The translations under genes were made by a program, and so were the position numbers. From a virus, in the IMG/VR virus record IMGVR_UViG_3300033150_001258, positions 1 to 28,204 of that record: a stretch of DNA of 28,204 bases; one strand, 5' to 3'. This document shows positions 3,451 through 15,844 of the stretch, piece after piece (within the stretch, counting starts at the first letter, position 1; each line of letters starts with the position of its first letter). The notes beneath the pieces are model-generated. The model was not told the origin of the DNA and made no database searches. It saw only the letters and a list, made by a program, of their open reading frames with translations.

Positions 3451-3641
3451 CTGTCCGAGAGATAGCAAAGAGATTTAAAGTCCGTAAATGGCTTGTTTAT
3501 GATGTTATTGATTATATCGAAACTGTGCAGGGATATAACTTTAAACGGGAAGGAAACCGGCTAGTGATAGATGATAAAGCTTATCAAAGAATTACAAAAG
3601 AATTAGAAAGAAGAGGCTATTATGAGAAGGTGAAACTATGA
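3447..3641 (+). CDS. Small helix-turn-helix protein, 64 aa
   Basis: The first 25 residues (VREIAKRFKVRKWLVYDVID) fit a helix-turn-helix of the MerR/excisionase kind: a first helix, a tight turn at FKV, and a basic recognition helix. The remainder is basic and helical. It starts after GGAGGTGG and overlaps both neighbours by four bases, so it is made together with the PD-(D/E)XK exonuclease. A local repressor or a DNA-binding accessory factor is plausible. The family is not certain. Confidence 0.6.
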   Translation: MTVREIAKRFKVRKWLVYDVIDYIETVQGYNFKREGNRLVIDDKAYQRITKELERRGYYEKVKL

Positions 3642-4651
3642 AATATGCGCCCTATAGTTTTTCGCGGCTCTCTGAGTATCAGAGATGTCCGCGGAAGTTT
3701 TATTTTAAATACATTGAACGACTCCCGGACTTGTTACAGGAAGCTGGGCGATTCGGAAAGATTGTTCATGAGCTTATTAGCTATGCGCTAGAAAAGCAAA
3801 CATTTAATCAAGCTATCCTTGCGAGATTATCTCCAGCGGAAGCGAACGAGGCAATTGATATGTTAGAGAAGGCTCTTCAATTTAAACAAAATATTCCACT
3901 ACTTGAAGAATATGGAACCGAAATTCAATTCGCGATAAAGGCTAGTGGTGAACTTACAGACTTCAATGATTCAAATGCACTTCTACGGGGAGTGATAGAC
4001 TATGCGATTTTAATTGAGGGGATTGATAGACAAATTAAAATGCTGGTGGACTGGAAAACGGGGCATAACCCACCAGACCCGTTACAACTTCAAATTTATA
4101 TGCAAGCTATCAGGGATGACAATGTTCAAGGCGTTTTTGTGATGTTGAGGACTGGAAAAATAATAATCGTAGATAAAGATGAAAAAGCTAAAGAAAAAAT
4201 CCTAAGAATGATTAAAACTATTGAACAAGATAAAGAGTTTGAACCAAAGCCGGGAATGCATTGTTCATTCTGTTCTTATCTCTCGATGTGTCCACTTGCT
4301 AAATCTATCCAAGAAAAAGATATCCCGGCTATTCGAACACTTGAAGAGCTTGACAAAGCCTACAAAGAACTATCAATCTTGCAGATTAAACAAAAGCGAT
4401 GGAAAGAAGCTATTAAACAGTATTTAAAAGCTATAGAAAAACCGATTGATTATAAAGGTCTTACTTACCGAATTGGTTATTCTCAAGTACATAAAGTCAA
4501 GCCCGACAAAGCAGCAGAGCTATTCGGTAAACTTTTAGAAGAAAAACCTGACGCTTTAAAGATTGATAACAAAAGAGCTTTTGAAGCTTTTCCGGAGTAT
4601 TTTGATATATCTTATCAGGAAAAATTGATAGTTGAAGGAGGGGAAAAATGA
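3638..4651 (+). CDS. PD-(D/E)XK exonuclease with Fe-S cluster (Cas4/AddB/RecB-like)
   Basis: A 337-residue RecB-family nuclease. Motifs in order: S9-x-L-x3-Q15-x-C17, G40-x3-H44, E95, G118-x2-D121, the catalytic D138-x-K140, and Q150-x3-Y154. Four cysteines (C17 and C209, C212, C218) match the 4Fe-4S site of Cas4 and AddB. Such enzymes resect DNA ends and in phages usually pair with a single-strand annealing protein; a candidate partner lies 0.7 kb downstream. The C-terminal 110 residues are charged and helical. Cas1 and Cas2 are absent, so it is a recombination rather than an adaptation enzyme. Start and stop overlap the neighbours by four bases. Confidence 0.85.
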   Translation: MKYAPYSFSRLSEYQRCPRKFYFKYIERLPDLLQEAGRFGKIVHELISYALEKQTFNQAILARLSPAEANEAIDMLEKALQFKQNIPLLEEYGTEIQFAIKASGELTDFNDSNALLRGVIDYAILIEGIDRQIKMLVDWKTGHNPPDPLQLQIYMQAIRDDNVQGVFVMLRTGKIIIVDKDEKAKEKILRMIKTIEQDKEFEPKPGMHCSFCSYLSMCPLAKSIQEKDIPAIRTLEELDKAYKELSILQIKQKRWKEAIKQYLKAIEKPIDYKGLTYRIGYSQVHKVKPDKAAELFGKLLEEKPDALKIDNKRAFEAFPEYFDISYQEKLIVEGGEK

Positions 4652-6248: not shown

Positions 6249-7502
6249 ATGTTTAAAGAAGAGTTAGGAAAGTTTAAAACTAAGAATGAAAAGATAGTTT
6301 ATATGTTTTTGAAATTAGTAGATGAACCAGTCAAGCTAAAGGAACTCACGGCTTTATTAGAAATTAATTACCACACTCTATATGGTATTATTAAAGGATT
6401 CGAGAAGAAAAATTTAGTATCATTAAACAAAAGAGGAAAAACTGTTTGGATAGAGAACAATTTGATTTTTGGAAATACCCCCGAAAATAAGGGTTTTTCA
6501 AAAAATGTTTCAAAAAATCTATCAAAAAATCCTGACAATAGTCAAGCACTCTCCAAAACATCATTAGCGAATTTGTTTGACATCCAAACTCAAAAAATGT
6601 TTCAAAAAATCCATAAAAATTTCGAACCCAAGATATCGAACGCTCAGAAAAATGCACGAAATATCGAAAATACCGATTCCAAAGTCTTTATTCAAAATCA
6701 TTACAGCGATTGTAAAGTGATACTAAACTTAATTGGTTGGGCTCTTGTGAAAAAAAAAATACTTATTCTCTCAAACCTGCATAAATCCTATACTTTCGCG
6801 GTAGGGCGGCGAGATATGAATGGATTGATGATTCTCAAGAAAAATATTGATAAAACTATCGAATCGTTGGAAAAACAACTATTAATCAAGGTTTCAGAGC
6901 TTTTTAAAGAAAGAAAGAAAGAAAAAGAAAAAGAAAGGATCAAAGAAAAAGAAAAAGAAAGAAAGAAAGAAAAAGATTTATATATATATATCTTCTCTTC
7001 TCAATCGTTAAGGGATAACCATAAGTCTATGGTACTACCTATACGATTAGAGAGAAAAATAAATATCTTTAATAGAGATATTGCTTTTATATATAAATAT
7101 TTTATAATAGCGAAACGATTGTTTATAAAGCAACTACCTCAAAATATTCCTAAACAGAAGGAGTTCCTAACCGCAAAAGATATGATAGAGATAATTAAGA
7201 GTCAATTTTTAAATCAAACCTCTAGTGTAGATTGTATAGATAAATTTATTAAACTCTTTAAACGACTGCCTAAGAAAGAAATGAATGCGATTATCACTAA
7301 AATCTATCAAGTTATTGATGAATATAAATGCTATCAAAATTTTGAAAAATTTATGTATGATTTTATAAGTCCGCGGGCTCAATCAATTATTGAAGCGTGG
7401 ATACCAATTAAGTATCTCGAAGGTATTCTCAATAAAGTAAATCTCCATTATGAATATAACGAATGGGTGAAAGGGAGGGCGATATATGCCGTTGATAAGT
7501 GA
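6249..7502 (+). CDS. Winged-helix replication initiator/helicase-loader-like protein, 417 aa
   Basis: Residues 1-75 read as a winged helix (KLVDEPVKLKELTALLEINY, then a wing ending KTVWIEN). A low-complexity middle holds repeated SKN peptides and, near residues 218-245, a run of Lys/Glu. The C-terminal part (DMIEIIKSQFLNQTSSVDC...) is helical. It lies immediately before, and overlaps, the DnaB-type helicase, the usual place for a phage initiator or helicase loader. The repeat-bearing DNA inside it may be the origin. No known loader motif is clear. Base composition is extremely AT-rich, and the purine tract at 6905-6976 is odd. Confidence 0.6.
   Translation: MFKEELGKFKTKNEKIVYMFLKLVDEPVKLKELTALLEINYHTLYGIIKGFEKKNLVSLNKRGKTVWIENNLIFGNTPENKGFSKNVSKNLSKNPDNSQALSKTSLANLFDIQTQKMFQKIHKNFEPKISNAQKNARNIENTDSKVFIQNHYSDCKVILNLIGWALVKKKILILSNLHKSYTFAVGRRDMNGLMILKKNIDKTIESLEKQLLIKVSELFKERKKEKEKERIKEKEKERKKEKDLYIYIFSSQSLRDNHKSMVLPIRLERKINIFNRDIAFIYKYFIIAKRLFIKQLPQNIPKQKEFLTAKDMIEIIKSQFLNQTSSVDCIDKFIKLFKRLPKKEMNAIITKIYQVIDEYKCYQNFEKFMYDFISPRAQSIIEAWIPIKYLEGILNKVNLHYEYNEWVKGRAIYAVDK
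6498..6611 (+). repeat. Iteron-like repeats inside initiator gene
   Basis: The 9-mer TCAAAAAAT occurs at 6498, 6510, 6522, 6590 and 6602. The first three and the last two are each spaced 12 bp apart. Bases 6498-6519 and 6590-6611 are identical 22-bp direct repeats. Repeats inside a replication initiator gene are typical of phage origins such as lambda ori within gene O. Origin function here is inferred. Confidence 0.55.
6905..6990 (+). repeat. Purine tract followed by AT tract
   Basis: About 70 bases of tandem GAAA/GAAAAA units encode an almost pure Lys/Glu/Arg segment. TTTATATATATATATC (from about 6977) follows. On the + strand this is an all-purine tract next to an easily melted tract. It could be the unwinding element of the origin, or simply an alpha-helical linker coded by slippage-prone DNA. 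Confidence 0.5.
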
Positions 7503-8688
7503 TGATATAGTTGAAAGTCTTTTAGGCGGTTTCATGTTATATCCTCAATATCGCTATTATGCTTATTCAGTTGAAGTTCCGGGACATTTTAAAAAAGCTT
7601 TAAAAGCTATCCAAGAGAATCCAAATGCTGGTTATGAAACAATAGTGCTTGAGCTTGAAGAAAAATATCCAGACATCTATCAATGGATAGACCTTGCACC
7701 GCAGGAGTGGGATTTTGAAAATTTTATCCAGACATATATAGAGCAATATAAGAGGGCAAAATTGGTGGAAAATATTAAGTCGTTGGCTACAAGAATTGAA
7801 AAACTAGAATCATCTACTATCCAAATGGAGCTGAACAAAATTGTGAGAGCAACTCTTGATAGCAATGTGGAAGTGCGGCATATCAAGGATGTAATTTCAG
7901 AGTTGATAGAGGATTTACACCGAATTAGAAAGGAGGGGGGAATACGGATACCGTATCTTTGGAAATTGGTAAACGATTTATTTGGTGGTGAATTAATAGT
8001 TTTGGCTGGACGTCCAGGGATGGGAAAAACAACATTGATGGTAAATATGGCAGAGCAATTTGCACGACAAGGGGCAACGGTGGGATTTATAACGCTGGAA
8101 ATGCCTGATAAATCACTAACTTTAAAGCTAGTTCAACGGTTCTGGAATATTTCACTTTTTAGGCAAGCTAAAGAGCTTTCAGATGAAGATGTGAGCTTAA
8201 TAGAAAAACAATTTTCAGATTTTATGGAACTTCCGATTTATTTTTCCACAAGAACGACTACACGGATAACTAGTGTTTTGGCAACTTTGAAATACTTTGT
8301 AACGATGTTTGATGTAAAGATATTTTTTATCGATTATCTCCAATTATTAAGAGCTCGATTCGGAAATAGAGTTGAAGAGCTTGCATATATCACAAGAACT
8401 CTTAAAGAGTTTGCAATTGAAAATAATGTGTCGATCTTTCTGGGATCACAGCTTAATAGAAATGTAGAATACAGAGAAGACAAAATGCCGACCTTGGCAG
8501 ACTTAAGGGAGTCTGGAGCAATTGAGCAAGACGCTGATGTGGTAGTGATGTTGTATCGGCCGTGGTATTACGATAAGAACGAGGATAAATCAAAGCTGAT
8601 TTTAAAGATAGCTAAACAGCGAAATGGGGTTATTGGTTCAATAGTGGTTAGGTATGAGATGGATAAGCACCTTATTTTGGATGAATGA
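7486..8688 (+). CDS. dnaB: DnaB-type replicative DNA helicase
   Basis: A 400-residue RecA-fold helicase. Walker A is GRPGMGKTT at about residues 175-183, Walker B is IFFIDYLQLL near 280, and the DnaB-specific block GSQLNR...PTLADLRESGAIEQDADVVVMLYRP follows, with the arginine-finger region near the C-terminus. The N-terminal 110 residues correspond to the DnaB N-domain, somewhat short. It unwinds DNA at the replication fork. The ATG at 7486 follows GGGAGGGCG and overlaps the preceding gene by 17 bases, so helicase and putative loader are co-translated. Confidence 0.95.
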   Translation: MPLISDDIVESLLGGFMLYPQYRYYAYSVEVPGHFKKALKAIQENPNAGYETIVLELEEKYPDIYQWIDLAPQEWDFENFIQTYIEQYKRAKLVENIKSLATRIEKLESSTIQMELNKIVRATLDSNVEVRHIKDVISELIEDLHRIRKEGGIRIPYLWKLVNDLFGGELIVLAGRPGMGKTTLMVNMAEQFARQGATVGFITLEMPDKSLTLKLVQRFWNISLFRQAKELSDEDVSLIEKQFSDFMELPIYFSTRTTTRITSVLATLKYFVTMFDVKIFFIDYLQLLRARFGNRVEELAYITRTLKEFAIENNVSIFLGSQLNRNVEYREDKMPTLADLRESGAIEQDADVVVMLYRPWYYDKNEDKSKLILKIAKQRNGVIGSIVVRYEMDKHLILDE

Positions 8689-9560: not shown

Positions 9561-9965
9561 ATGCCATATTTGAATAAGTGTTTGTTGATGGGATATGTTC
9601 GCAAAGGAATAAAGGTAAAGGAAACTAAGACGAATAAAAAGATTTATTCTTTTACTCTATATCATCGGCAAGGAGAGGCTAAGAATTATATCACAATCAA
9701 GGCATTTGATAAGACAGGGGAACGTGTTAAAGAGGGTGATTTGATATTGGTTGATGGGACTATTCAAGCTCAGAGCTATAACGGGAAATTTTTTAATAAT
9801 GTTCTCGCAAATAGAATTTATATTATCCAGCGTCAAGAAGAACAAGAAACTAAACAAGAAAGTGATGAGTTTCCCGGAGTGACTGAAAGTGATTTTCTAG
9901 AGCCTGAAAACGATAATATAAACTTTGAAGAAGAATTTGAAGATATCTTTGGTGATGATAAATAA
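9561..9965 (+). CDS. ssb: Single-stranded DNA-binding protein
   Basis: The 134-residue product has an OB-fold pattern: MPYLNKCLLMGYVRKGIKV, a middle strand YSFTLYHR, KNYITIKAFDKTGE, then DLILVDGTIQAQSYNG and NNVLANRIYIIQ, followed by an acidic tail ending EEEFEDIFGDDK. SSB coats single-stranded DNA in replication and recombination and recruits partners through its acidic tail. The tail here lacks the exact DDDIPF tip. Context (helicase, exonuclease and annealing protein) agrees. Confidence 0.85.
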   Translation: MPYLNKCLLMGYVRKGIKVKETKTNKKIYSFTLYHRQGEAKNYITIKAFDKTGERVKEGDLILVDGTIQAQSYNGKFFNNVLANRIYIIQRQEEQETKQESDEFPGVTESDFLEPENDNINFEEEFEDIFGDDK

Positions 9966-9982: not shown

Positions 9983-10321
9983 ATGAAAGAGATATATGTG
10001 ATAAATTGGCTGTATTCAAATGGAGCTCAAAAATATAATGCGGTGGTCTTTGTATCAGATAAGTTTGAAGAAGCTCAAAAACATTGGTTAAGGCTATGCA
10101 AAATCGCTGTTGATAGCTATGAAAGTTTCGAACTTGTTCGACGCAAAATAGATGATACAAGTATTGTTGATACAATTATTGAAGTAGCCAATAATTCACA
10201 GGGATTTGCAATCCGTCAAAGAGGTAGAAAGCCGAGCAGAGCGTTAAAGAAAGTTAATGATGATAATATTATGAAGAATTATTTTAAAATCTTAGAAAGA
10301 ATATGGAGGGGGAGAAAATGA
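9983..10321 (+). CDS. Hypothetical basic-tailed protein, 112 aa
   Basis: Not recognised. Residues 1-75 look like a compact alpha/beta domain. Around residue 78 is RQRGRKPSRALKK, a basic linear motif similar to, but not the same as, an AT-hook (RGRP), so nucleic-acid binding is plausible. The start has GGGAGGGGAGGTG. The gene overlaps the next by four bases (ATGA), so it is probably co-translated with the TasA-like protein and could be a partner. Confidence 0.65.
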   Translation: MKEIYVINWLYSNGAQKYNAVVFVSDKFEEAQKHWLRLCKIAVDSYESFELVRRKIDDTSIVDTIIEVANNSQGFAIRQRGRKPSRALKKVNDDNIMKNYFKILERIWRGRK

Positions 10322-10926
10322 GTGAAGCCAAGGTTTTGATTCCCGAGGAATTGAAAAGACTTGCGTCATTAGTGAAACTTTATGATACTTTTCAGGATTT
10401 ACGAATAGTGCTAAATAATAAGGTCAGAACACTAGATATTGAGAGTGAGGCTCTTGATACAATACCAGTTATTGCAAATAATATGCTCTTATCTGAAAAA
10501 ATCATTGCAAAAGAGATTGAGAGAGAGGTTAGGCAAATTGATGTTTATCGAGAATATCTTAGATATGTTAAAGGGCTGGGAGCTGTTTTATCAGCGAAGT
10601 TAATTTGCTATATTAAAGATATTGAAAGATTTGCAACAGTAGCCAAATTGTGGAGATATGCCGGGCTTGGAGTAGTTGATGGCAAAGCAGAGAGAAGAAG
10701 AAGAGGACAAAAAGCAAACTATAATACAAGATTTAAAGCATTAATGTATGTGATAGCTAACTCGTTCTTGAAAACAGGCTCAAAATATCGAAGAATGGAG
10801 AAACTCTTCTTAGCGCATGTTTGGGAGAAATGGCGAGAGATAGAGGGACTTCCAACAAGAGAGCCCTACCCAATTGAATATCTCGGCCATATAACGAAGC
10901 TAGAGCCAGAGGAGTTCATGGGATAA
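10318..10926 (+). CDS. tasA: TasA-like protein: IS110-type C-terminal (Nop-like) domain without nuclease
   Basis: Of 202 residues, about 80-165 match the C-terminal domain of IS110/IS116 transposases (Tnp_20): the helix-hairpin-helix YVKGLGAVLSAKLICYI, then ERFATVAKLWRYAGLG, then a very basic RRRRGQKANYNTRFKAL and a final helix. Residues 1-80 are a helical, coiled-coil-like arm. The DEDD RuvC-like domain of IS110 and the catalytic-serine segment are absent, so this is not a transposase. The Nop-like domain alone beside a 36-bp-periodic array is the arrangement described for TIGR-Tas (TasA class). The array begins 12 bases after the stop. It probably binds processed 36-nt RNAs and would bind, not cut, DNA (inference). 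Confidence 0.8.
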   Translation: MSEAKVLIPEELKRLASLVKLYDTFQDLRIVLNNKVRTLDIESEALDTIPVIANNMLLSEKIIAKEIEREVRQIDVYREYLRYVKGLGAVLSAKLICYIKDIERFATVAKLWRYAGLGVVDGKAERRRRGQKANYNTRFKALMYVIANSFLKTGSKYRRMEKLFLAHVWEKWREIEGLPTREPYPIEYLGHITKLEPEEFMG

Positions 10927-10937
10927 CTAAGGTCTTT

Positions 10938-11873
10938 GAAAGCCAATTTTGATGTTGGGCACGGAATATAATTGCGAGCCTAAACATGATGTAACCCTTG
11001 ATTGTATTGCGAGCCAATGCTTTATGAGTTCCAAGTCACAGTTGCGAGCCTCGTTAAAATTTAAATCCTTGGTTATGTATGCGAGCCTGTATTTTGATGA
11101 TGTCCGTGTAATGGTTGCGAGCCCGTGTGCATTTGAAACCTAGGAGATAAACGCGAGCCATTCGGAGGGTTGGCTATATTGGTAAAATGCGAGCCTTATT
11201 TACTGTGAGAATCTCAATTTAAGTGCGAGCCGTGGATATTCTGAGCTCCATATTGCCTTGTGAACCAATAATGGATTATAAACGCAAAAAATTTGTGAGC
11301 TTTTGTCCTAATGATATCCACTATCGTATTGCGAGCCCAAGGTAGTCTTAGTTTCAGTCTCACCGTGCGAGCCGGTTTCCTTTTTGTTACAGAGTAACAA
11401 TGCGAACCTAAAATAGGTGGAGTACCGCAAGGAAAATGTGAGCCGGGTTAAACATGATACCAATGTTATGTTGCGAGCCATTGACATTTTCGGATACATA
11501 GGGACTATGCGAACCGAGTTGTATGTGATAACCTTAAAAAGGTTGTGAGCTATACGGAATATGTTACCCGTAGTCCGACTGCGAGCCTAAACCCAAGTTA
11601 GAAACTGAAAAGAATTGCGAGCCTATCCCCCAATGTATCTCGAAAATATATGCGAGCCTAAAACAAAATGATATCCTGTGAATCAAATGCGAACCGAAGC
11701 CTAAATGAGTGCCCTAAAAGGTATGTGAACCAGCCCGGTGTTGAGTACCATATTTTACGTGTGAACCAATAAATTCTTGATTTCTAGATGAAATGTGAGC
11801 CTTCACCCCCAGTGGTTGCCGAAGGAGTATTGCGAGCCAAAAATGGTTGAGAACCATATATAAAATGCGATTT
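10938..11873 (+). repeat. TIGR-type array, 27 edge repeats, 26 units of about 36 bp
   Basis: The 7-mer GYGARCY (mostly GCGAGCC, usually preceded by T) starts at 10974, 11009, 11044, 11081, 11117, 11153, 11189, 11225, 11260, 11295, 11331, 11367, 11402, 11438, 11473, 11509, 11545, 11581, 11617, 11652, 11689, 11725, 11761, 11795 and 11832. Degenerate end copies are at 10938 (GAAAGCC) and 11867 (GCGATTT). Spacing is 34-37 bp, mean 35.7. Halfway in each unit, usually 17-18 bp after the edge, lies a second weaker motif, TGNNNNCC (often TGATATCC or TGAGTACC). Each unit therefore holds two different 9-10-nt spacers. No long ORF or ribosome site explains it. Confidence 0.85.
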
Positions 11874-12048: not shown

Positions 12049-12465
12049 ATGCTAAAAAAAGGTCAATGGTTTGAAGATGATGCTTATGTGAATTATGATG
12101 ATGTTGAAGAGCTGATTAATGACCTCGGACTTGATGACCAAAAAGCATTTGAGCTATATCGATGGATTGTAGAAGAGAGAATGCGAATGCTTGAAGCACT
12201 CGGATTAAATGATTATTTCCATCGCAAGTCTTATGACCCAATTACAATAGAAATTGATGAAAATGGTCATATAATCATCCACAGCTATTTGTTTAACCTT
12301 TGGGATGGCGAAAGGCATCATTACAGAGATGATTTGAATATTAAAAATTATCCAACGATGGCAAAACTTCTTGGTTATTTGGATGAATGGATTCTGAAAG
12401 AATTAATTGAGGATGGTAAGGAAGCTATTAATGATTTAAAAGATGATAATGATAAGGAGGGGTAA
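12049..12465 (+). CDS. Hypothetical protein, 138 aa
   Basis: Not recognised. An acidic soluble protein with a helical first half and a short beta hairpin (PITIEIDENGHIIIHSYLF), then an acidic helical tail. Good ribosome site (AAAGGGAGGGG). First intact gene after the TIGR-like array and the start of a run of small accessory genes. Confidence 0.7.
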   Translation: MLKKGQWFEDDAYVNYDDVEELINDLGLDDQKAFELYRWIVEERMRMLEALGLNDYFHRKSYDPITIEIDENGHIIIHSYLFNLWDGERHHYRDDLNIKNYPTMAKLLGYLDEWILKELIEDGKEAINDLKDDNDKEG

Positions 12466-15341: not shown

Positions 15342-15464
15342 ATGTCAAAAAGCATTTATCTGTGCGGCCGAGTGTGGGGCTGGACTGCAAATCCAGCTCC
15401 CACGAGTCGAGGATATCCCTGGCTCGTTATAATTCATAGAGAGAGGCGATTGAAATGGCTATAA
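15342..15464 (+). CDS. Possible 40-aa ORF over GC-rich hairpins
   Basis: An ATG at 15342, 8 nt after GAAGGG, opens a 40-codon frame with four Trp residues that ends ten bases into the next gene. The DNA is much more GC-rich than its neighbours and folds into two strong hairpins, so a non-coding reading is at least as likely. I list it as a doubtful alternative. Confidence 0.3.
15374..15427 (+). ncRNA. Tandem hairpins, first with tRNA-Cys-like loop
   Basis: Hairpin 1 (15374-15403) has 11 base pairs with one bulged T and the 7-nt loop CTGCAAA, which equals a tRNA-Cys anticodon loop. Hairpin 2 (about 15403-15426) has about 9 pairs including G-U and one A-C mismatch. Upstream GCCGAGTGTGGGGC resembles a tRNA D-arm. 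No T-arm with TTCRA or acceptor stem can be drawn, so it is not a functional tRNA. It may be a regulatory leader of the gene at 15455. Confidence 0.45.
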
Positions 15465-15844
15465 ATTCCAAAATCGAGTGGACTGAAGCGTCTTGGAATC
15501 CAGTAACAGGTTGTACTAAATATAGCTTAGGATGTTTAAATTGCTATGCTGAAAGAATGGCTAAAAGGCTTCAAAAAATAGGGGTGTCCAAATACAAAAA
15601 TGGTTTTGAGATAATACTTCATCCGGAGGAATTGAAACTCCCATTCAGATGGAAAAAAAGCAGGATAATATTTGTTGCTTCCATGAGTGATCTTTTCCAT
15701 GAAAAAGTACCTTTTGAATTTATTAAGAAGGTATTTGAAGTAATGAACAAAGCACATTGGCATACATTTCAAGTTCTTACTAAAAGAGCTGAAAGACTGG
15801 CAGAACTCAGCTCGCAACTCAAAATGCAAGAGTATCTTGAATAA
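15455..15844 (+). CDS. Truncated three-Cys-motif protein (Gp37/Gp68, DUF5131)
   Basis: The N-terminus is diagnostic: [15 protein letters not shown], then C-x6-C-x2-C followed by [10 protein letters not shown], later [12 protein letters not shown] and [15 protein letters not shown]. This family is widespread in phages and is usually about 230-260 residues; three cysteines near the N-terminus suggest an Fe-S, radical-SAM-like site. Here only 129 residues remain: the sequence stops just after the TKRAERL segment, where the C-terminal half (normally continuing LGVSVE) should begin. The next gene starts at once, so the end was lost by deletion or recombination rather than a frameshift. Activity is doubtful. 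Confidence 0.8.

What the first reader, a model, noticed from the sequence alone, without database searches (positions are those of the whole stretch)
10318..11873. TIGR-Tas-like locus in a phage: nuclease-free Nop/IS110-domain protein plus 36-bp-periodic dual-spacer array
Seen: 27 edge repeats (GYGARCY) with 34-37 bp spacing start 12 bp after a 202-aa gene whose only recognisable domain is the IS110 C-terminal domain. Known: TIGR-Tas systems, described in 2025 as I recall, combine a Nop-like domain derived from IS110 with arrays giving 36-nt dual-guide RNAs; TasA members lack a nuclease. Inference: this is a TasA-type system that would bind rather than cut its targets, possibly to silence host, rival-phage or own genes.
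Basis: partly seen in the sequence, partly recalled or inferred. Interest (0 to 1): 0.95.

Follow-up and report, generated by a model that had tools for sequence, protein, structure and literature searches.

The report
Phage TIGR-TasA guide-RNA locus
A tailed phage carries a nuclease-free TasA protein gene next to 26 tandem two-part RNA guides, a recently described kind of RNA-guided DNA-binding system; this is a new, slightly unusual member whose targets are still unknown.

Summary
There are 25 intact edge repeats (TGYGARCC) plus one degenerate and one truncated, 34-37 nt apart, starting 10 bp after a 202-aa gene; shuffled sequence never chains more than 2. The interpretation also holds: this is a TIGR-TasA locus (Faure et al. 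2025, PMC12045711). The protein matches TasR (PDB 9mty, E=1e-25) and TasH by sequence, and its confident model (pLDDT 92) matches both by fold (Z 16-19). Loop repeats (TGANNNCC) and roughly 9-nt spacers are present. Both base pairs known from the TasR structure show up as covariation. The edge pair forms between successive edges (position 6 of one, 3 of the next), not within an edge: 25/25 in the window, 240/242 over 28 arrays. That places each RNA unit from mid-edge to mid-edge, as in processed tigRNAs. At least 22 phage contigs and 4 bacterial contigs carry the same array type. The window's TasA lacks a helix and part of the next, about 25-28 residues present in every relative, TasR and TasH; its loop repeats also drift more. 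It may be a trimmed or decaying copy. No spacer target was found in its own genome, in 21 related contigs, or (with limited sensitivity) in phage databases. Known kind, new member; biological role unresolved.

The parts
10318..10926 (+). tasA gene, 202 aa, Nop/IS110 C-terminal domain, no nuclease domain
   Evidence: PF02371 2.5e-7; PDB 9mty TasR E=1.3e-25, TasH 4e-9; AlphaFold pLDDT 91.6 and Foldseek top hits TasR, TasH, IS621; VIA Z 19.5 to TasR
10786..10797 (+). site in tasA where relatives, TasR and TasH carry a further ~25-28 residues (one helix and the start of the next); absent here, reading frame kept
   Evidence: protein alignment A2; L005 model helices 155-168 and 173-199 against window helix 161-176; block aligned in 9mty and TasH
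10937..11870 (+). TIGR dual-repeat array, 26 units of 34-37 nt: edge, spacer A, loop, spacer B
10937..10944 (+). first edge repeat, degenerate at its 5' side (TGAAAGCC)
   Evidence: sequence; register
10973..11838 (+). 25 intact edge repeats TGYGARCC; position 6 of each pairs with position 3 of the next
11866..11870 (+). last edge, 3'-truncated (TGCGA), followed by T-rich sequence; no terminator met the scan's criteria
9983..10321 (+). upstream ORF (112 aa, no family) overlapping the tasA start by 4 bp, suggesting one transcript
   Evidence: no Pfam match
9561..9965 (+). SSB-like protein; early/replication module next to the locus
   Evidence: PF00436 9.6e-8
7486..8688 (+). DnaB-like replicative helicase
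   Evidence: phrog_19 1.1e-64
3638..4651 (+). Cas4-like PD-(D/E)XK exonuclease (phage replication type, not an adaptation module)
   Evidence: PF12705 2.9e-22

Best explanation
It is a dual-repeat TIGR-TasA system of a tailed phage. Shown by sequence: a solo Nop-domain Tas protein gene followed directly by a 26-unit array whose edge and loop repeats keep the box C/box D motifs and the two base pairs seen in tigRNA structures. Inferred: gene and array are transcribed together with the phage's early genes; a host RNase, helped by TasA, cuts in the middle of each edge to give about 36-nt tigRNAs; a TasA dimer holds each RNA by the edge pair and the loop pair; spacer A pairs with one DNA strand and spacer B with the other next to it; and the complex opens and bends the site without cutting. 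The most likely use is blocking transcription or replication of competing mobile DNA. The missing conserved block in this copy leaves open whether it is fully active.
For: Protein: TasR and TasH are the only significant PDB sequence matches and the top fold matches. Array. Edge pair covaries only between successive edges: Fisher 5e-5 in the window, against 0.2-0.9 at other offsets; 25/25 canonical; 240/242 over 28 arrays with 0 of 5000 permutations as good. Loop pair G-C to U-A covaries, p about 1e-4. Relatives: 48 loci in IMG/VR, same array type beside TasA in 21 of them plus Microcystis phage Mvi-JY20 and four bacterial contigs. No nuclease domain (202 aa, all Nop). Published TasA binds processed 36-nt RNA (PMC12045711). 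No self-targets, which fits outward action.
Against: The block of about 25-28 residues missing from TasA is present in every relative compared, and in TasR and TasH. Loop boxes depart from G-C more often than in other arrays (7/25 against 12/195, p=0.002). No target was found. No terminator met the scan's criteria after the array. Expression, processing and DNA binding were not testable here.
Confidence: 0.8

Rival explanations
1. It is a TIGR-TasA locus in decay: an in-frame deletion removed a helix and part of the next from TasA, the protein no longer supports tigRNA processing or DNA unwinding, and the array is drifting.
For: The block is conserved in all other members, TasR and TasH. Loop boxes drift more here than elsewhere. 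Unit lengths are more variable (34-37).
Against: The frame and the rest of the protein are conserved and fold confidently. Edge pairing is perfect, 25/25, and most of the loop boxes that no longer read G-C still pair, so selection on the RNA was intact until recently. The segment varies in length across the family.
Confidence: 0.25
2. The array regulates the phage's own genes: tigRNAs direct TasA to sites in the same genome.
For: The locus sits in the replication module. TasA could act as a programmable repressor (inference).
Against: Own-genome A + rc(B) matches at up to 3 of 18 mismatches are no more frequent than in wrong arrangements or swapped partners, over 220 units in 22 contigs; none with 0 or 1 mismatch in the window. 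The window and its close relative G001 share no detected spacers although the structural genes are 64-77% identical.
Confidence: 0.07
3. A remnant or relative of an IS110 transposon and its bridge RNA.
For: PF02371 match; fold match to IS621.
Against: No DEDD catalytic domain (202 aa). TasR and TasH match far better than IS621 (E 1e-25 and 4e-9 against 1.2). A 26-unit dual-spacer array is not a bridge RNA.
Confidence: 0.01
4. A non-RNA periodic element, such as protein-binding iterons near the replication genes.
For: Periodic repeats beside helicase and SSB genes.
Against: Base pairing between successive edges at one offset only, and loop pairing, are RNA features. The same array type accompanies TasA in otherwise unrelated phages.
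Confidence: 0.01

Closest known systems
TIGR-TasA dual-repeat systems (e.g. Flavonifractor plautii FpTIGR; Faure et al. 2025, PMC12045711)
   Same: Solo Nop protein, downstream array, edge/spacer/loop/spacer units near 36 nt, truncated first and last edges, phage location
   Different: 26 units (5-15 typical); third base of box C (CCA) not kept; TasA ~25-28 residues shorter inside the C-terminal part than its relatives; no scored terminator
TIGR-TasR (PDB 9mty)
   Same: Nop fold, UG/CC boxes in both repeats, edge G-C pair, loop pair
   Different: No RuvC nuclease domain; lacks the helix and half-helix segment
TIGR-TasH (PDB 9vzx, 9w04, 21kl)
   Same: Nop fold, Z 16-19
   Different: No HNH domain; lacks the helix and half-helix segment
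IS110/IS621 bridge-RNA recombinases
   Same: C-terminal RNA-binding domain (Z 13-14)
   Different: No DEDD domain, no bridge RNA; a guide array instead

Membership tests
TIGR-Tas (dual-repeat) | Tas protein with Nop domain | tested here: met
   Sequence match to TasR/TasH; fold match, also to Nop5 and Prp31 at Z 8-9
TIGR-Tas (dual-repeat) | Adjacent array of alternating edge and loop repeats with ~9-nt spacers (up to 12) | tested here: met
   Edges; loops against shuffles; mostly 9-11 nt between boxes (8 in one place)
TIGR-Tas (dual-repeat) | Box C/D motifs shared by edge and loop, with the C/D pair and the edge pair across a processed unit | tested here: met
   UG...CC in both; covariation of loop 2-7 and edge 6-3 at lag 1
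TIGR-Tas (dual-repeat) | Truncated first and last edge | tested here: met
   TGAAAGCC at 10937 (degenerate 5' side) and TGCGA at 11866
TIGR-Tas (dual-repeat) | Rho-independent terminator after the array | tested here: inconclusive
   Scan found none, but the criteria are simple; T-rich sequence follows
TIGR-Tas (dual-repeat) | Processing into 36-nt tigRNAs and RNA-guided DNA binding | not testable with these tools
   Needs expression; covariation predicts cuts within the edge
TasA subtype | No nuclease domain | tested here: met
   Whole 202 aa is the Nop part; no HNH or RuvC match
TasA subtype | Complete C-terminal helical part as in relatives (an observed family-wide trait, not a published criterion) | tested here: not met
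   ~25-28 residues absent
TasA with tasParB | ParB-like partner in the operon | tested here: inconclusive
   The immediately flanking ORFs 9983-10321 and 12049-12465 have no Pfam match
IS110 transposase | DEDD catalytic domain plus C-terminal domain | tested here: not met
   Only the C-terminal domain is present

The most novel reading that the evidence does not exclude
This TasA is a natural minimal form: it lost the helix and half-helix segment found in all other Tas proteins compared, yet still works with its array, perhaps as an RNA binder or weaker DNA binder, making it one of the smallest RNA-guided DNA-binding proteins.
Probability: 0.2. Interest if true: 0.55.

Novelty: new member of a known kind. 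Interest (0 to 1): 0.45.

Why it matters
TasA is described as the commonest TIGR effector, and its function and targets are unknown (PMC12045711). This locus and its relatives give (a) an independent, purely genetic demonstration that the edge pair of tigRNAs forms between neighbouring edges, (b) a related phage pair (window and G001) that kept the locus but share no detected spacers, which argues for changing external targets, and (c) culturable relatives: Microcystis phage Mvi-JY20, Ornatilinea apprima, and cluster A mycobacteriophages, in which the question of TasA targets could be tested directly.

Tried and rejected
Self-targets: none above control arrangements in the window or over 220 units. 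Cross-targets among 22 contigs: 2 hits with one mismatch against 0-1 in control, not significant. Target strings against phages by blastn: nothing, but by my estimate only matches of about 20 bases or more would reach E 10 at that query length. Four exact 18-mer scans of IMG/VR: 0, 0, 0 and 2 (the two contigs are 99.9% identical, so one site), which chance allows. Hairpins inside units: no excess over shuffled spacers. Rfam: no match. Plasmids: no TasA. Duplicated half-units: 4 spacer pairs at 8/9 or better against 1.3 expected, p=0.03, not pursued. Mycobacteriophage stem-array targets: none convincing.

Full report
What was checked. The window is the whole of a 28,204-base virus record. It encodes an HK97-type tailed phage: terminase, portal, head proteins, and an early module with a Cas4-like exonuclease, DnaB-like helicase and SSB. 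The finding lies between the SSB and the terminase. The 202-aa ORF 10318-10926 is real; its start overlaps the previous ORF by 4 bp.

The array. Twenty-five edges match [TC]G[CT]GA[AG]C[CT] from 10973 to 11831, with spacings 34-37, mostly 36. A degenerate edge precedes them at 10937 and a truncated one follows at 11866, so 26 units lie between 27 edges. Shuffled windows gave chains of at most 2. A gap-free EM search between the edges finds a second motif, TGANNNCC (score 168; shuffled segments 103 +/- 6.5, maximum 121). About 10 bases separate each box C (CC) from the next box D (TG), as in the clean relative L018, where the unit reads TGCGAGCCA-9-TGAAAACCA-9.

RNA-level evidence. In the TasR structure the loop repeat holds a box C/D pair, and the edge holds that pair plus one more, formed across a processed tigRNA (PMC12045711). 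In this array, edge position 6 is A in six edges and G in the rest; position 3 is T in seven. Every A6 is followed by T3 in the NEXT edge. Fisher p is 5e-5 at lag 1 and 0.19-0.91 at lags -2, -1, 0, 2 and 3. All 25 successive pairs in the window are G-C, A-U or G-U. Over 28 arrays, 240 of 242 are; permuting position 6 within arrays gives 15 non-canonical pairs on average and never fewer than 8 in 5000 trials. In the loop, positions 2 and 7 change together from G-C to U-A or G-U (p about 1e-4; blind test over all position pairs 0.0006, the best of 28). These are the pairs expected of mature tigRNAs cut in mid-edge. They do not show that the RNA is made.

The protein. Pfam finds the IS110 C-terminal domain. 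The only convincing PDB sequence relatives are TasR 9mty (1.3e-25) and TasH (4e-9); IS621 scores E=1.2. An AlphaFold model built with 21 relatives has mean pLDDT 91.6 and pTM 0.87. Foldseek ranks TasR first, then TasH, then IS621/ISCro4. VIA gives Z 19.5 to TasR, 16-19 to TasH, 13-14 to IS110 recombinases and 8-9 to Prp31/Nop5. No nuclease domain is present. This is TasA.

A peculiarity. Every other TasA aligned has a segment after the conserved Y157 (in L005 about IYDKAKEYYQANRDWTKSHIHLAAMRK), and TasR and TasH have it as well. In the L005 model it is helix 155-168 plus the start of helix 173-199. The window goes straight from YRR to MEKLFL. The loss is in frame, and the rest of the protein is conserved and modelled confidently, partly because the alignment guides the model. 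Agreement with TasR is Z 24.2 for L005 and 19.5 for the window. The junction reads cgaagaatg; recombination between short repeats could explain it, but that is inference, and an assembly error cannot be excluded. Loop boxes also depart from G-C more often than in other arrays (7/25 against 12/195, p=0.002). Either the copy is a functional short form or it has begun to decay; perfect edge pairing argues that any decay is recent.

Relatives. A profile-guided scan of IMG/VR found 48 loci; 21 of them and Microcystis phage Mvi-JY20 carry arrays of the same kind next to TasA (L018 and L019 are near-identical copies). Bacterial contigs of Ornatilinea apprima, a Cloacimonadota, a Yanofskybacteria and a Bacteroidetes MAG carry them too. 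Most related contigs share little beyond TasA with the window, so the system appears in unrelated phages. One, G001, is a true relative: 17 ORFs shared, MCP 77%, portal 71%, TasA 47%, same position. No unit is shared between any two different contigs at 15/18 or better, although G001's array was only partly parsed.

Targets. From the published cut geometry (8-nt 3' overhangs, C-5 rule) I derived that a target reads spacer A then the reverse complement of spacer B, gap 0-2. Searching each phage's own genome this way gave no more hits than wrong arrangements or swapped partners. Searches outside found nothing convincing, with limited sensitivity. So self-regulation is disfavoured; external targets are the default, unproven.

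Verdict. It is a new member of a known kind, with an unusual internally shortened TasA.

Noticed in passing
L003:2129-2450 (Mycobacterium phage HermioneGrange) and same place in L114-L117, L033-L044: Upstream of the tasA homologue (matched in 75 mycobacteriophages, mostly annotated hypothetical or transposase) lie about five unannotated stem units: stem, CCA, 9 nt, CG...CCA, 9 nt, CG, stem. Across phages the stems and boxes are nearly invariant while the 9-nt spacers differ, in exchangeable cassettes. This fits a TIGR stem-loop array in a culturable phage group; no convincing targets found.
   Followed up: partly
L005:1104-1185: Two adjacent ~37-nt units in the array of the related phage are near-identical, suggesting growth by tandem duplication; elsewhere a few half-units repeat with a different partner, e.g. 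L104 2678 and 2858 share spacer B exactly (p=0.03 overall).
   Followed up: partly
L018 4589-5528 and L019 868-1807: Two contigs from different metagenomes carry the same ~26-unit array, 3 substitutions over 4,754 bases, so arrays can be stable over some time.
   Followed up: no
L002:3661-3961 (Microcystis phage Mvi-JY20, PP438412): Unannotated TIGR array of 9 edges next to a hypothetical TasA gene in a phage with a named host.
   Followed up: partly
window 15455-15844: DUF5131 fragment (129 aa matching the first half of a 243-position profile); also matches PADLOC candidate families PDC-M41B and PDC-M30B.
   Followed up: no
L049:5716 region: A 36-nt periodic repeat with a different motif (TTCGTGCC) near a 467-aa Tas-like protein, possibly a divergent TIGR array type.
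   Followed up: no
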